Positions 57,408-62,144 of a stretch of 64,000 nt of DNA are shown here, piece after piece. Under the pieces are notes generated by a model. That model had not been told where the DNA came from. It saw only the letters and a program-made list of their open reading frames with translations, and made no database searches. The stretch is from a virus, in IMG/VR virus record IMGVR_UViG_3300044998_001035, positions 1-64,000 of that record. One strand, 5' to 3'. Position 1 is the first letter of the stretch; every line of letters begins with the position of its first letter. Position numbers and translations under genes: made by a program.

Positions 57408-58118
57408 GTGGCGAGGCCCCGACCCGAGCCGGGCCACGGTGCCGACGCCCCGGCGTTGCCCGAGGGCGCGGTCTGGCGCGGCAACCCGCGCCTGGTCCCG
57501 CTGCTGGTCCCCGTGGCGTCGCTCCACGAGGACCCCGCCAACGTCAACACGCACCCGGAGCGGTCGGTCGCGGCCATCGCGGCGAGCTACGCCCGGTTCG
57601 GGCAGCAGAAGCCGCTGGTCTGCGGGCCCGACATGACCGTGCGGGACGGCAACGGCCAGCTCCACGCCGCGGCCGAGCGGCTGGGCTGGACGCACGTCGC
57701 GGCGATCCCGAGCGACCTGGACGGGGTGGAGCTGTCGGCCTACGCGCTGGCGGCCAACCGGACCGCCCAGCACGCCGAGTGGGACTTCGAGGCGTTGTCC
57801 GACGTGCTCAGGGCGATGCGGGACGGCGGCCACGCAATCGACGACCTGGGGTGGGCAGACTACGAGCTGGAGCCGCTGCTGGCCGCGACGTGGACGCCGC
57901 CCGAGCCCGGCCCGCTCCCGGGCGGGCCCGAGGCCCGCGACGCCGGGGAGCCCGTCGCCGGCGGGAAGGTGCGGTTCGTCCTGGAGGTTCCGGCCGACGA
58001 CGCGGACGTGCTCCGCAGGGCCGTCGCGGCGGCGCGCGGGGACGCGGCCGACGATTCGGTGGCGTCGGGCCTGGTCGAAATCTGCCGGGCGTACCTGGCC
58101 GCCCGCGGCGAGGGCTGA
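57408..58118 (+). CDS. ParB-like nuclease domain protein
   Basis: The 236-residue product starts at GTG. It has the phage-type ParB/sulfiredoxin fold: LLVPVASLHEDPANVNTHPE, AIAASYARFGQQKPLVC, VRDGNGQLHAAAERLGWTHV and ALAANRTAQHAEWD, with the GNG-x-LH signature of ParB-nuclease proteins that often sit next to terminase or methyltransferase genes. It precedes the 7-deazaguanine cassette, to which it may be functionally linked. Confidence 0.75.
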   Translation: MARPRPEPGHGADAPALPEGAVWRGNPRLVPLLVPVASLHEDPANVNTHPERSVAAIAASYARFGQQKPLVCGPDMTVRDGNGQLHAAAERLGWTHVAAIPSDLDGVELSAYALAANRTAQHAEWDFEALSDVLRAMRDGGHAIDDLGWADYELEPLLAATWTPPEPGPLPGGPEARDAGEPVAGGKVRFVLEVPADDADVLRRAVAAARGDAADDSVASGLVEICRAYLAARGEG

Positions 58119-58122
58119 ATGC

Positions 58123-58416
58123 ATGGGGCCGAGCGCGACGGGGCCATGCGACGGGACGACGGTCCGGCTCGCGGTCGGCCTGAACCCCAACGCGGCGACC
58201 GCGCGGGCCCTGGCCGCGCCGGCGGTACGCCTGGCATACCACCGCGAGGGGGACCGCACGTTGTCCGAGGCGTCCGAGACATCCGCCTCGCCCGCGGTGC
58301 GGCTGGCCATGCCCGCGGGGGCATTGCCGGCGAGGGGCGGGCCGTGGACAAGGGGCTGGAGCATGCGGACGCGCCCGCGCTGCTCGTCTCGTACGCGTAC
58401 CTCGGCCCGTTCCTGA
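58123..58416 (+). CDS. Small frame with repeated AVRLA motifs upstream of dpdA
   Basis: The 97-codon frame starts at ATG 4 bases after the ParB-like stop. It contains TVRLAVG, PAVRLAYH and PAVRLAMP at roughly 20-30-residue intervals; two more copies ([16 protein letters not shown]) lie in the C-terminal tail of DpdA in another frame. Only the first 70 codons look meaningful. It may be a small separate protein or the displaced N-terminus of DpdA. Confidence 0.35.
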   Translation: MGPSATGPCDGTTVRLAVGLNPNAATARALAAPAVRLAYHREGDRTLSEASETSASPAVRLAMPAGALPARGGPWTRGWSMRTRPRCSSRTRTSARS

Positions 58417-59225
58417 AGAACCGGGCGCGCTACAGGTATCGCGACTGGGCGCTGGACTCGGGCGCGTTCTCGGCCCACAACAGCGGGGCCGAAATCCGGC
58501 TCGACGATTACATCGACACGTGCAAACGGCTGATGGACGAGGACCCGACGTTGGCCGAGGTGTTCGCGCTGGACGTGATCGGGGACTGGCGGGCGTCGGT
58601 CCGGAACGCGGAGGAGATGTGGCGCCGGGGGGTGCCGGCGATCCCGTGCTTCCACGTCGGGAGCCCCGAGTCCGTCCTGGTCGGGCTCGCGAAGGATTAT
58701 CCGAAGATCGCCCTCGGGGGCTGCGTCGGCTACCGCAAGAAGGACGAGTTCGCCGCCAACTGCTTCGCCAGGGTCTGGCCGAAGAAGGTCCACGGGTTCG
58801 GGTTCGGGTCTCGGAAGTCGATCATGGCCCTCCCCTGGCACTCCGTGGACGCGACGAACTGGGAGATCGGCCCGTGCAAGTTCGGCCGGTGGGCTTCCTT
58901 CGGCAGCATGAGCGTGCGGGGCGGCGGCCAGAACCTGCGTGCCGAGGTGGAGTTCTACCTGGCCCTGGAGCGTCAGGCGCGCGCCCGGTGGCGGCGGCAG
59001 ATGGCGGAACTCGACGCGGCCGGCCCCGCGTCGGCCCCCGCCGTCCGGCTGGCCGCCCAGGCCGGCGGCGACGCCCAGATCGCGCGGTCTGGCCTGGCCG
59101 GACCGGTCCGGACATCGGGCTCGCCGTTGACGCCGGCAGCGCCTCGGGCGCCCGGGTCGCCTCCGCCATCGCCCGCAGTCCGTCTGGCGGTGAAGGAGAG
59201 CGGGAGGCAGGGCTGCCTCGGATGA
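58344..59225 (+). CDS. dpdA: DpdA: DNA 7-deazaguanine transglycosylase
   Basis: The 293-residue product starts at GTG with GAGGGGCGGG upstream. It is TGT-like: [18 protein letters not shown], the catalytic-type [12 protein letters not shown] with Asp38, [57 protein letters not shown] and [13 protein letters not shown]. It should exchange guanine in phage DNA for preQ0 or a derivative. The last 80 residues are a low-complexity tail with AVRLA motifs. It begins the cassette with QueC, QueD, QueE and FolE. Confidence 0.85.
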
Positions 59226-59265: not shown

Positions 59266-59934
59266 ATGAAGGTGGTCGCGGTCGTGTCGGGCGGCATGGA
59301 CTCCGTGACGCTGGCCCACTCCCTGCGCGCGGAGGGGCACGACCTGGCGCTGCTGTCGGTCGACTATGGCCAGCGGCACGCCAGGGAGCTGGCGTGCGCC
59401 GCCGCCTGCGCGGCGAGGCTGGGCGTCCCGCACCGGGTCGCGGACCTGAGGGCGCTGGCGCCGCTGCTGGGCGGGTCGAGCCTGACGGACCCGGCCGTGC
59501 CGGTCCCCGAGGGCCACTACGCGGCGGAATCGATGAAGGCGACGGTGGTGCCGAACCGGAACATGATCCTCCTGGCCGTGGCGGCGGGGTGGGCGATCTC
59601 CCGGGGCGCCGAGGCGGTCGCGATCGGGGCCCACGCCGGGGACCACGCGATCTACCCGGACTGCCGGCCCGAGTTCGCCGACGCGATGGACCGGGCGTTG
59701 TCGCTCTGCGACTGGTCCCCGGTGAGGGTCCTGCGGCCGTTCATCGGCGAGACGAAGGCCGGGATCGCCGCGCTCGGGGCCCGGCTGGGCGTCCCCTGGG
59801 CCGAGACCTGGAGCTGCTACAAGGGCGGGGACGCACACTGCGGGCGGTGCGGCACCTGTGTCGAGCGTCGCGAGGCGTTCGAGTTGGCCGGCGTCCCGGA
59901 CCCCACCCGCTATGACGTCGCCGAGGCGGCGTGA
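59266..59934 (+). CDS. queC: 7-cyano-7-deazaguanine synthase QueC
   Basis: The 222-residue product starts at ATG. The PP-loop is [15 protein letters not shown] (residues 6-20), followed by [54 protein letters not shown] and the zinc site [19 protein letters not shown]. It converts CDG to preQ0 using ATP and ammonia. All expected motifs are intact. Confidence 0.95.
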
Positions 59935-59958
59935 ACGGCCAACGCGAGGAGCGTCCGC

Positions 59959-60450
59959 GTGCGTCCGCTGAGGCGTGGTGAAGTCGCCGGGAAGGGGAAC
60001 CCGTTCCTGGTGTTGGCCGATCGCGGGGTCGAGGTTAGGTCGCCGCTGGGGGAGGACGAGATCCGTCGTCGCGACCTGGTCCTGACGACGAATTGCTGCC
60101 GCGAGAAGCTGGCGCGTCGCGACCCGGCGGACCACCGGGAGATCTACCTGGGGAGGATTCAGAGGCGGACCCATGAGTATGCCCGGTTGCGGGGGATACC
60201 GTCCGGGACCCTGAACGCCTACAACGGGATCTTCTTCGACGGAGACCCGGTCCCGCCTTACGACATCCACCCGAGCCAACTCGACGACGCCCGCCTGGTG
60301 GAACTCGGCCGGAACATCGGGCGCCGCTGCCGGTCTCGCGGCGTCCCGGGGGTCGCCTACTATCAGTCCACGCCGTACTTCGCCATGCCGTACCTGGTGA
60401 TGCTCTCCTACAGCGGGATTCCGTTCGTCTACGCCAGCCGGTTGTCCTGA
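59959..60450 (+). CDS. Unknown protein inside the preQ0 cassette (DUF6884/ArcS-core-like?)
   Basis: The 163-residue product starts at GTG. It reads LVLTTNCCREKLARRDPAD, HREIYLGRIQRRTHEYARLR, LNAYNGIFFDGDPVPPYDI and GVAYYQSTPYFAMPYLVML. The order, a hydrophobic strand ending in a Cys-rich K-containing loop, then a YL helix, then a later loop with PYDIHPSQL, recalls DUF6884 and the ArcS core (DUF5591), which act next to transglycosylases. The similarity is weak and is from memory only. It lies between queC and queD, so a role in making or altering the modified base is likely. Confidence 0.5.
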   Translation: MRPLRRGEVAGKGNPFLVLADRGVEVRSPLGEDEIRRRDLVLTTNCCREKLARRDPADHREIYLGRIQRRTHEYARLRGIPSGTLNAYNGIFFDGDPVPPYDIHPSQLDDARLVELGRNIGRRCRSRGVPGVAYYQSTPYFAMPYLVMLSYSGIPFVYASRLS

Positions 60451-60517: not shown

Positions 60518-60901
60518 TTGGAACCTGCGGAGGTTGCCCTGTTCCGGATCACGAAGCAGTTCTCGTTCAGCGCGAGCCACGTCCTGGACCATTTGCCGGC
60601 CGGCCACCCGTGCGCCCGGCTCCACGGGCACAACTACCGCGTCGAGGTGGTGGTGGAGTCGCCGTGCCTGGACGACCGCGGGTTCTGCCAGCTCGACTAC
60701 CGCGAGCTGGACGGGTTCGAGGCGTACCTGGACGAGGCCCTGGACCACCGGCACCTCAACGACGTGCTGCCGTGCCGGACGACGGCGGAGAACCTGGCCC
60801 GGTTCCTCCACGCGGAGGCGAGGAAGGCCAGCCCGTTCGTGGTCGCGGTTCGGGTCTCGGAGACGGAGAAGACGTGGGCCGAGTACAGGGGGCCGGCGTG
60901 A
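60518..60901 (+). CDS. queD: 6-carboxytetrahydropterin synthase QueD
   Basis: The product is up to 127 residues. TTG 60518 is the first normal start, but GGAGG at 60529-60533 lies 5 bases before a CTG at 60539, which would begin at LFRITKQFSFSASH as family members do. Zinc ligands are His in SASHVL and LHGHNYRVEV, with Glu in the ETEKTWAEY end, and DHRHLNDVL and PTxEN-like TTAENLARFLH are present. It makes CPH4 from dihydroneopterin triphosphate. The next gene overlaps by 4 bases. Confidence 0.9.
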   Translation: MEPAEVALFRITKQFSFSASHVLDHLPAGHPCARLHGHNYRVEVVVESPCLDDRGFCQLDYRELDGFEAYLDEALDHRHLNDVLPCRTTAENLARFLHAEARKASPFVVAVRVSETEKTWAEYRGPA

Positions 60902-61566
60902 GGTACGCGGCCAACGACGTCTACGCCTGCATCCAGGGCGAGGGGTGCATGGCCGGCCAGTCGATGGCGCTCGTGCGCCTGATGGGCTGCGCGGTCGGGT
61001 GCCCGTGGTGCGACACGAAGGAGACGTGGGAGGCCGCCGAGTCGTCGCGGCGCCCGACGCTGGCGGCGGCGCTCGGAACGGGGCCCGCGTGGGCCTGGGC
61101 CTCCCCCGACGAGCTGGCGGCGGCGGCCCGCGCCGCGGGGCCGGCGATCCCCTGGGCGCTCGTGACCGGCGGGGAGCCGGCGGAGCAGCCGCTGGGCCCG
61201 CTCTGCGGGTCGCTGCGCGCCGCCGGATTCCGCGTGGCGCTGGAGACGTCGGGGACGGCCGCCGGGTTCGAGGGGGCCGCGATCGACTGGCTGTGCGTCT
61301 CGCCGAAGCTCGGCATGCCGGGCGGGAAGGCGGTCCTCCCCGGCGCCGTGGCGGCGGCCGACGAGGTCAAGATGGTCGTGGGGCGGCCGGCGGACCTGGA
61401 CGCCCTGGACGCGCTGCTGGCGTCGTGCCCGGCGAGGCCGGGGCGCCAGGTCTGCCTCCAGCCCGTGAGCGGGAGCCAGAAGGCGACGACGCTGTGCGTC
61501 GAGGCGGCGAAGGCGAGGGGGTGGCGGCTGTCGCTCCAGGTCCACAAGTTCCTGGGGGAGCGATGA
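60898..61566 (+). CDS. queE: 7-carboxy-7-deazaguanine synthase QueE (radical SAM)
   Basis: The 222-residue product starts at a GTG overlapping the QueD stop. It has the compact radical-SAM core: ACIQGEGCMAGQSMALVRL, iron-sulfur Cys31, Cys35 and Cys38 in MGCAVGCPWCDTKETW, VTGGEPAEQPLGPL, VALETSGTA and VSPKLGMPGG, ending LSLQVHKFLG. It converts CPH4 to CDG. It overlaps FolE by 4 bases. Confidence 0.95.
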   Translation: MRYAANDVYACIQGEGCMAGQSMALVRLMGCAVGCPWCDTKETWEAAESSRRPTLAAALGTGPAWAWASPDELAAAARAAGPAIPWALVTGGEPAEQPLGPLCGSLRAAGFRVALETSGTAAGFEGAAIDWLCVSPKLGMPGGKAVLPGAVAAADEVKMVVGRPADLDALDALLASCPARPGRQVCLQPVSGSQKATTLCVEAAKARGWRLSLQVHKFLGER

Positions 61567-62144
61567 GCGAGGACGCGGATCGCGGCCCGCGCCGGGTGGA
61601 CCACGCCAGGGTGGAGCGGCTGGCCAGGGAACTGCTGGAAGCGGTCGGGGAGGACCCGTCCCGCGAGGGGCTGCGGGACACCCCGCGGCGGTTCGCCGAC
61701 TGGTGGCGGGAGTTCCTGGAGCACGACCCCGGCCGCGTCGCCACGTCGTTCGAGTCCGACGCGTCGGACCAACTCGTCGTGGTCTCCGGGATGCGCGCGT
61801 GGAGCCTGTGCGAGCACCACCTGCTGCCGTTCTGGTGCGACGTGGCCATCGGGTACATCCCGAGGGGCCGGCTGCTCGGCCTGTCCAAGCTGGCCCGCGT
61901 GGCGCACAAGCACGCCCGCCGGCTCCAGGTCCAGGAGCGGCTGGCGGCCGGGGTCGCGGACGAGGTGTCGGCCCTGTCCGGCTCCCCCGACGTGGCCGTG
62001 CTGGCGCGCGGCGAGCACCTGTGCATGACGATGCGCGGGGCCAGGACCCCGGGCCTGATGACGACGAGCGTCGTCCGCGGCGCGTTCCGCGCGTCGGCCT
62101 CGGCCCGCCAGGAGTTCTTCAGCCTGGCCGCGCCCCGCGCGTGA
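61563..62144 (+). CDS. folE: GTP cyclohydrolase I FolE
   Basis: The 193-residue product starts at an ATG overlapping the QueE stop. It has LLEAVGEDPSREGLRDTPRR, zinc Cys83 and His86 in SLCEHHLLPFW, GYIPRGRLLGLSKLARV and the second Cys in ARGEHLCMTMRGAR. It makes 7,8-dihydroneopterin triphosphate from GTP, the first step of preQ0 synthesis. With QueD, QueE and QueC the pathway from GTP to preQ0 is complete in the phage. Confidence 0.95.
   Translation: MSEDADRGPRRVDHARVERLARELLEAVGEDPSREGLRDTPRRFADWWREFLEHDPGRVATSFESDASDQLVVVSGMRAWSLCEHHLLPFWCDVAIGYIPRGRLLGLSKLARVAHKHARRLQVQERLAAGVADEVSALSGSPDVAVLARGEHLCMTMRGARTPGLMTTSVVRGAFRASASARQEFFSLAAPRA

What the first reader, a model, noticed from the sequence alone, without database searches (positions are those of the whole stretch)
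59959..60450. Uncharacterised gene in the middle of the preQ0 cassette
The protein lies between queC and queD and has a TNCCREKL...HREIYL pattern faintly like DUF6884/ArcS-core proteins that act on preQ0-type bases. It could reduce, amidinate or otherwise alter the base, or help DpdA choose sites, giving a modification not yet described.
Basis: inference. Interest (0 to 1): 0.7.

Follow-up and report, generated by a model that had tools for sequence, protein, structure and literature searches.

The report
DpdC-like gene in phage deazaguanine cassette
A small unnamed gene inside a phage's DNA-base-modification operon is a very diverged relative of a protein family (DUF6884/YaaA fold) that viruses repeatedly place beside the base-inserting enzyme DpdA, so it probably alters the inserted base, most likely turning its cyano group into an amide.

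Summary
The ORF is real: 59959-60450, 163 aa, GTG start, Shine-Dalgarno, in the order parB-dpdA-queC-X-queD-queE-folE of a 78.8-kb virus record. Its faint DUF6884 likeness holds up, but only as distant kinship: Pfam E=0.022, 15.3 bits, below the 30-bit cut-off. It keeps all four residues invariant in 50 viral DUF6884 proteins (C46, K50, G90, Y101); half of the well-conserved columns are lost; no shuffle reached its score. No close homologue exists outside a near-identical contig, and sister phages lack the gene. The new evidence is context. Of 62 viral DUF6884 loci drawn by a DNA motif, 40 lie beside dpdA and/or queC/D/E/folE, always on the same strand, including the very slot queC-DUF6884-queD and dpdA-DUF6884 without que genes; 17 control loci had none. 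Cyanobacterial plasmid 'DpdA' proteins are DUF6884-TGT fusions, and viral DUF6884 proteins match models of DpdC, which hydrolyses dPreQ0 to dADG. Best reading: an accessory enzyme acting on dPreQ0 in DNA through Cys46, probably nitrile to amide. None of eight phages with measured 7-deazaguanines carries DUF6884, so the product is untested; another product (dG+ or new) or a DpdA-helper role remain open.

The parts
57408..58118 (+). ParB-like protein gene directly upstream of dpdA, as in many such cassettes
   Evidence: PHROG ParB-like 2e-22; same neighbour in sister phages
58119..59225 (+). dpdA: TGT-like DNA guanine transglycosylase
   Evidence: PHROG queuine tRNA-ribosyltransferase 5.4e-34; 61-75% identical to DpdA of sister viral contigs
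59266..59934 (+). queC: preQ0 synthase
   Evidence: Pfam QueC 8.2e-62
59946..59951 (+). Shine-Dalgarno-like GAGGAG, 7 nt before the GTG start
   Evidence: sequence
59959..60450 (+). gene in question: 163-aa diverged DUF6884/YaaA-like protein
60094..60108 (+). C46-C-R-E-K50: the CxxxK motif of DUF6884, presumed active site
   Evidence: C and K invariant in all 51 aligned sequences; motif described for DUF6884 in PMC11701544
60211..60228 (+). L85-N-A-Y-N-G90: diverged form of the LSAxxG motif
   Evidence: alignment A5; S replaced by N
60256..60264 (+). P-Y101-D: conserved PYD/PYE of the family
   Evidence: Y101 invariant in A5
60518..60901 (+). queD
   Evidence: Pfam PTPS 2.8e-29
60898..61566 (+). 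queE
   Evidence: NCBIfam QueE 7e-56
61563..62144 (+). folE
   Evidence: Pfam GTP cyclohydrolase I 3e-52

Best explanation
The gene is an accessory member of the phage's 7-deazaguanine DNA-modification operon. FolE, QueD, QueE and QueC make preQ0 and DpdA swaps guanine in phage DNA for preQ0 (inferred from family membership). The 163-aa protein is a strongly diverged relative of the DUF6884/YaaA-fold proteins that many viruses keep beside DpdA. It most likely acts after DpdA, on dPreQ0 in DNA: the invariant Cys46 attacks the nitrile to give a thioimide (as in QueF and QueF-L), Lys50 and the conserved tyrosines assist, and water resolves it to the amide dADG, the reaction of bacterial DpdC. Shown: ORF, operon position, distant kinship, association of the family with DpdA cassettes, fusion of the family to DpdA, DpdC-profile matches of the relatives. 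Inferred: substrate, Cys chemistry, amide product.
For: Distant kinship of the target: Pfam DUF6884 15.3 bits; only window ORF hit by a viral DUF6884 profile, no shuffle of 5000 as good; all four invariant residues C46, K50, G90, Y101 kept; core residues 40-130 at pLDDT 82-90 when modelled on the family alignment, with YaaA/DUF6884 proteins leading the viral structure matches. Family context: L132 has dpdA-queC-DUF6884-queD-queE-folE-terminase. Of 62 motif-drawn viral DUF6884 loci, 40 are next to dpdA/que genes, same strand in all 60 adjacent pairs; 17 control loci 0 (Fisher 6e-7). At 60% clustering 28 of 41 clusters are associated, 7 with the slot queC-DUF6884-queD, 7 with DpdA but no que gene, which points to a step with or after DpdA. 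Isolates: Fusobacterium phage phiFN37 ParB-DpdA-DUF6884-preQ0 transporter, halovirus HRTV-29 YaaA-DpdA. Cyanobacterial plasmid DpdA proteins are DUF6884+TGT fusions above both Pfam cut-offs. DpdC models match 49 of 51 aligned proteins, best 5e-9. DpdC hydrolyses dPreQ0 to dADG (PMC12839542). Cys-thioimide attack on the preQ0 nitrile is established for QueF and QueF-L (PMC5485725).
Against: The target itself is below the Pfam cut-off, hits no DpdC or PHROG model, keeps only 11 of 22 columns conserved at 70% or more and lacks a recognisable C-terminal G-x-G-x-Q-L stretch. Alone it could not be modelled (pLDDT 34), and the good model used an alignment made of DUF6884 proteins, so the fold match is partly circular; no PDB match was significant. 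Phages with measured dADG (CP220, MED16, 7-11) lack DUF6884, so dADG can arise otherwise and no measured phage tests this gene. About a third of viral DUF6884 loci have no dpd/que gene nearby, so the family has other roles. Close sister phages lack the gene.
Confidence: 0.5

Rival explanations
1. Same enzyme position and Cys chemistry, but a different nucleophile resolves the thioimide: ammonia or an amino acid (amidine, dG+ or a lysine-amidine as in ArcS), giving dG+ or an undescribed derivative.
For: The motif region is strongly changed (LSAKYG to LNAYNG, no conserved F), which fits changed chemistry. ArcS transfers L-lysine to preQ0 (PMC11298593). Vibrio phage nt-1 with ArcS has dPreQ0, dG+ and dADG (PMC6884629).
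Against: No ArcS, QueF or amidotransferase domain was found in the target; nearest functional models are DpdC, not ArcS.
Confidence: 0.2
2. A non-catalytic or DNA-handling partner of DpdA: it binds DNA, flips or presents bases, and helps DpdA reach or choose sites.
For: DpdA-DUF6884 adjacency without que genes and natural fusion to DpdA. DUF6884/YaaA share a positively charged cleft, and YfjM binds DNA lesions and is modelled to flip a base (PMC11701544).
Against: Invariant Cys and Lys across distant members look catalytic; DpdC in the same superfamily is an enzyme.
Confidence: 0.18
3. Passenger gene: a DUF6884-like moron, or decaying relative, that landed in the operon without a role in base modification.
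For: Lower GC3 than its neighbours (0.87 vs 0.95-0.98); no such gene in sister phages; DUF6884 genes also sit alone in phages without preQ0 genes; half of the conserved columns lost.
Against: Co-directional with its own ribosome site in the slot that unrelated phages also use for DUF6884; enrichment of the family in cassettes; intact reading frame, identical in a second contig.
Confidence: 0.12

Closest known systems
DpdC of bacterial dpd islands (dPreQ0 to dADG)
   Same: DpdC models match nearly all of the viral DUF6884 relatives over their core (best 5e-9, DpdC residues about 48-108); works beside DpdA.
   Different: The target itself matches no DpdC model, is half as long (163 vs about 310 aa), sits in a phage preQ0 operon and comes without restriction genes nearby.
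DUF6884 (PF21818)
   Same: CxxxK, PYD and the glycine of LSAxxG; aligned over residues 45-119.
   Different: 15.3 bits against a 30-bit cut-off; LSA is LNA; 40-aa N-terminal extension; C-terminal motif not recognisable.
YaaA (PF03883; PDB 5caj)
   Same: Best PDB sequence match of the family profile (E=0.0084).
   Different: Much larger protein, other context; the target alone gives no match.
DUF6884-TGT fusion DpdA of cyanobacterial plasmids
   Same: Both domains in one chain, as neighbouring genes in the window.
   Different: Fused, not separate; better conserved DUF6884 domain.
Rosebush-type mycobacteriophage cassette (Laurie)
   Same: Same order parB-dpdA-queC-queD-queE-folE-terminase; a DUF6884 gene (gp08) just beyond terminase.
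   Different: Its DUF6884 gene lies outside the operon on the other strand.

Membership tests
DUF6884 (PF21818) | score at or above curated cut-off of 30 bits | tested here: not met
   15.3 bits, E=0.022
DUF6884 (PF21818) | CxxxK motif | tested here: met
   C46-CRE-K50; both invariant in 51 sequences
DUF6884 (PF21818) | LSAxxG motif | tested here: inconclusive
   LNAYNG: L, A, G kept, S to N
DUF6884 (PF21818) | YaaA-like 'cantaloupe' fold | tested here: inconclusive
   Model with family alignment matches viral YaaA/DUF6884 models but partly circular; single-sequence model failed
DpdC | match to DpdC profiles | tested here: not met
   Target 0 hits; 49 of 51 aligned proteins hit
DpdC | encoded with dpdA | tested here: met
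   dpdA at 58119-59225, same operon
DpdC | hydrolyses dPreQ0 to dADG in DNA | not testable with these tools
   needs LC-MS/enzymology
ArcS (archaeosine synthase) | ArcS domains | tested here: not met
   no ArcS-type family among Pfam or NCBIfam hits
QueF / QueF-L | QueF (T-fold) domain | tested here: not met
   no QueF hit in Pfam or NCBIfam

The most novel reading that the evidence does not exclude
The protein is the founder of a diverged branch of DUF6884 enzymes that acts on dPreQ0 in phage DNA through a Cys thioimide but makes a product other than dADG or dG+, that is, a 7-deazaguanine DNA base not yet described.
Probability: 0.08. Interest if true: 0.85.

Novelty: new variant of a known kind. 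Interest (0 to 1): 0.6.

Why it matters
Phage 7-deazaguanine pathways are described as preQ0 synthesis plus DpdA plus a few finishing enzymes. The data here indicate that a DUF6884/YaaA-type protein is a frequent part of viral dpd cassettes. PHROGs leaves the family without a function, and the papers I could read do not make the link; the halovirus paper lists HRTV-29 YaaA and DpdA separately. It gives a concrete, testable finishing step, explains an unannotated family as a likely nitrile-converting DNA-base enzyme, and links bacterial DpdC, DpdA fusions and phage genes. Two relevant papers (a 2024 review and a 2023 paper on deazaguanines in DNA) were not available, so priority is not certain.

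Tried and rejected
Close homologues by exact peptide patterns in viral and genome contigs: only one near-identical contig. tblastn of the target in phages: none. PHROG, NCBIfam, PADLOC with the target: none. Single-sequence AlphaFold: failed. PDB fold search: nothing significant; the influenza PA and ribokinase rows are noise. phmmer of the target in PDB: chance ribosomal matches. Correlating DUF6884 with measured phage modifications: none of the eight measured phages found in the collections carries it; the only hit was unmeasured Laurie; Rosebush and Orion records were not held. Closer cassettes by QueE: L273 is nearest (58%) but has no queC in the stretch read and no target homologue. Reading the gap genes of other cassettes gave a transporter, PRTase-like and other small ORFs, not target homologues.

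Full report
Observation. The ORF at 59959-60450 (+) is present as described. It starts with GTG, has a GAGGAG ribosome site 7 nt upstream, and has coding-like GC by codon position. It lies in the order parB-like (57408), dpdA (58119), queC (59266), X (59959), queD (60518), queE (60898), folE (61563); in the near-identical contig L001 a terminase-like ORF follows further on (read from the translation). The enzymes are secure: QueC 8e-62, PTPS/QueD 3e-29, FolE 3e-52, DpdA/TGT 5e-34 in PHROGs, QueE 7e-56. The window belongs to a virus record of 78,806 bases. A second viral contig carries the whole cassette with no difference in the genes compared (L001).

What the protein is. Pfam gives one weak hit, DUF6884, E=0.022, 15.3 bits against a cut-off of 30. 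The Pfam authors describe CxxxK and LSAxxG motifs and a distant YaaA kinship with a positively charged cleft for this family (PMC11701544). The target has C46-C-R-E-K50, L85-N-A-Y-N-G90 and P-Y101-D. In an alignment with 50 viral DUF6884 proteins, C46, K50, G90 and Y101 are invariant and present in the target, but only 11 of 22 well-conserved columns match. A profile built from viral DUF6884 proteins (target excluded) picks the target as its only hit among 519 window ORFs, and none of 5000 shuffles reaches its score. With the target as query, the best non-self hit among ORFs of 141 loci is the DUF6884 protein of L132 (E=0.0067), which sits in the same slot. Structure: alone the model fails (pLDDT 34); with the family alignment residues 40-130 reach pLDDT 82-90, and the best viral matches are YaaA and DUF6884 proteins, with no significant PDB match. 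Since the alignment was made of DUF6884 proteins, this is support but not independent proof. Verdict: distant, sub-threshold kin of DUF6884, not a filed member.

Surroundings in other viruses. Sister viral contigs with DpdA 61-75% identical (L003-L012) have the same cassette without any gene between queC and queD. The gene is therefore an optional insert, and its GC3 is lower than its neighbours'. In contigs found through QueC, DUF6884 genes occur inside cassettes of six independent lineages (L022/L024 twice in tandem, L028, L075, L102, L115, L132). Within 106 records the cassettes make up 11% of bases and hold 6 of 10 independent DUF6884 occurrences, P about 3e-4 (rough, bases taken as trials). 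L132 repeats the window's order exactly: dpdA-queC-DUF6884-queD-queE-folE-terminase, with overlapping start and stop codons.

Reverse test. A degenerate DNA pattern for ILSAKYGL drew 79 new viral loci without regard to context. 62 hold a DUF6884 gene; 40 of these are within 5 kb of dpdA or que genes: 20 with dpdA and que genes, 11 with que genes only, 9 with dpdA only. The 17 loci that matched the pattern without DUF6884 have none (Fisher 6e-7). All 60 directly adjacent pairs are on the same strand. After clustering at 60% identity, 28 of 41 clusters are associated, 19 directly next to queC, 7 with queC-DUF6884-queD, 7 with dpdA but no que gene. Caveat: the pattern picks one motif form, which the target itself lacks, and many contigs are fragments.

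Isolates and fusions. Fusobacterium phage phiFN37 carries ParB-DpdA-DUF6884-preQ0 transporter, with no que gene in the stretch read; halovirus HRTV-29 carries YaaA-DpdA as overlapping genes. The paper describing HRTV-29 lists the two separately and draws no link (PMC8651126). Mycobacterium phage Laurie has the window's cassette order and a DUF6884 gene beyond terminase. Three cyanobacterial plasmid proteins annotated DpdA (from Picosynechococcus, Nostoc, Allocoleopsis) are fusions of an N-terminal DUF6884 domain to a TGT domain, both above Pfam cut-offs. Viral DUF6884 proteins match PADLOC DpdC models (49 of 51 aligned proteins, best 5e-9). A paper on dpd-island mining also names DUF6884 as the domain of DpdC (PMC11888242).

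Mechanism. DpdC hydrolyses dPreQ0 to dADG (PMC12839542). QueF and QueF-L attack the preQ0 nitrile with a cysteine, giving a thioimide that absorbs at 376 nm (PMC5485725). An invariant Cys and Lys in a family that sits with DpdA, also where preQ0 seems to be imported and not made, fits a nitrile-converting step on DNA after DpdA. I therefore commit to: Cys46 thioimide on dPreQ0, resolved by water to dADG. Shown: ORF, operon, distant kinship, family context. Inferred: substrate, Cys role, product. From memory, not tested: archaeal ArcS also carries a PCxxxK motif.

Limits. None of the phages with measured 7-deazaguanines that I could test (MED16, CP220, 7-11, nt-1, CAjan, Dp-1, 9g, HVTV-1) has DUF6884, so nothing measured tells its product, and dADG in some phages must arise otherwise. 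DUF6884 genes also occur in phages without any dpd or que gene in view, so the family is not confined to this pathway. The target has diverged much, and a changed function or decay is possible. The 2024 review and the 2023 paper on 7-deazaguanines in DNA were not held.

Noticed in passing
L264 1074-3149, L265 3812-5956, L266 753-2849 (cyanobacterial plasmids): Proteins annotated DpdA are natural DUF6884-TGT fusions of about 700 aa.
   Followed up: yes
L022 4443-4829; L004 4277-4618; L043 1822-2181: Small phosphoribosyltransferase-like genes recur inside viral preQ0 cassettes, often next to queE; role unknown.
   Followed up: partly
L273 5143-5592 (IMGVR 3300045136_000360): Cassette with QueE/FolE 58% identical to the window, a divergent DpdA, no queC seen, and an extra QueD-like ORF before queD; may stop at 7-carboxy-7-deazaguanine or make another base.
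   Followed up: no
L102 5796-7780: Two DpdA-like genes flank a DUF6884 gene in one cassette.
   Followed up: no
L022 2314-3348: Two tandem DUF6884 genes between queC and folE.
   Followed up: partly
L072 4712-5335: Membrane protein resembling a preQ0 transporter (YhhQ/VUT type) between queC and queD; recognised by eye only.
   Followed up: no
window 57408-58118: ParB-like gene directly upstream of dpdA, as in many related cassettes and in phiFN37; perhaps a DpdB-like partner.
   Followed up: no
window 58119-59225: The dpdA frame carries scattered 'PAVRLA'-like repeats in its N- and C-terminal tails that sister DpdA proteins share in part (e.g. 'TLRLA', 'TVRLA').
   Followed up: no
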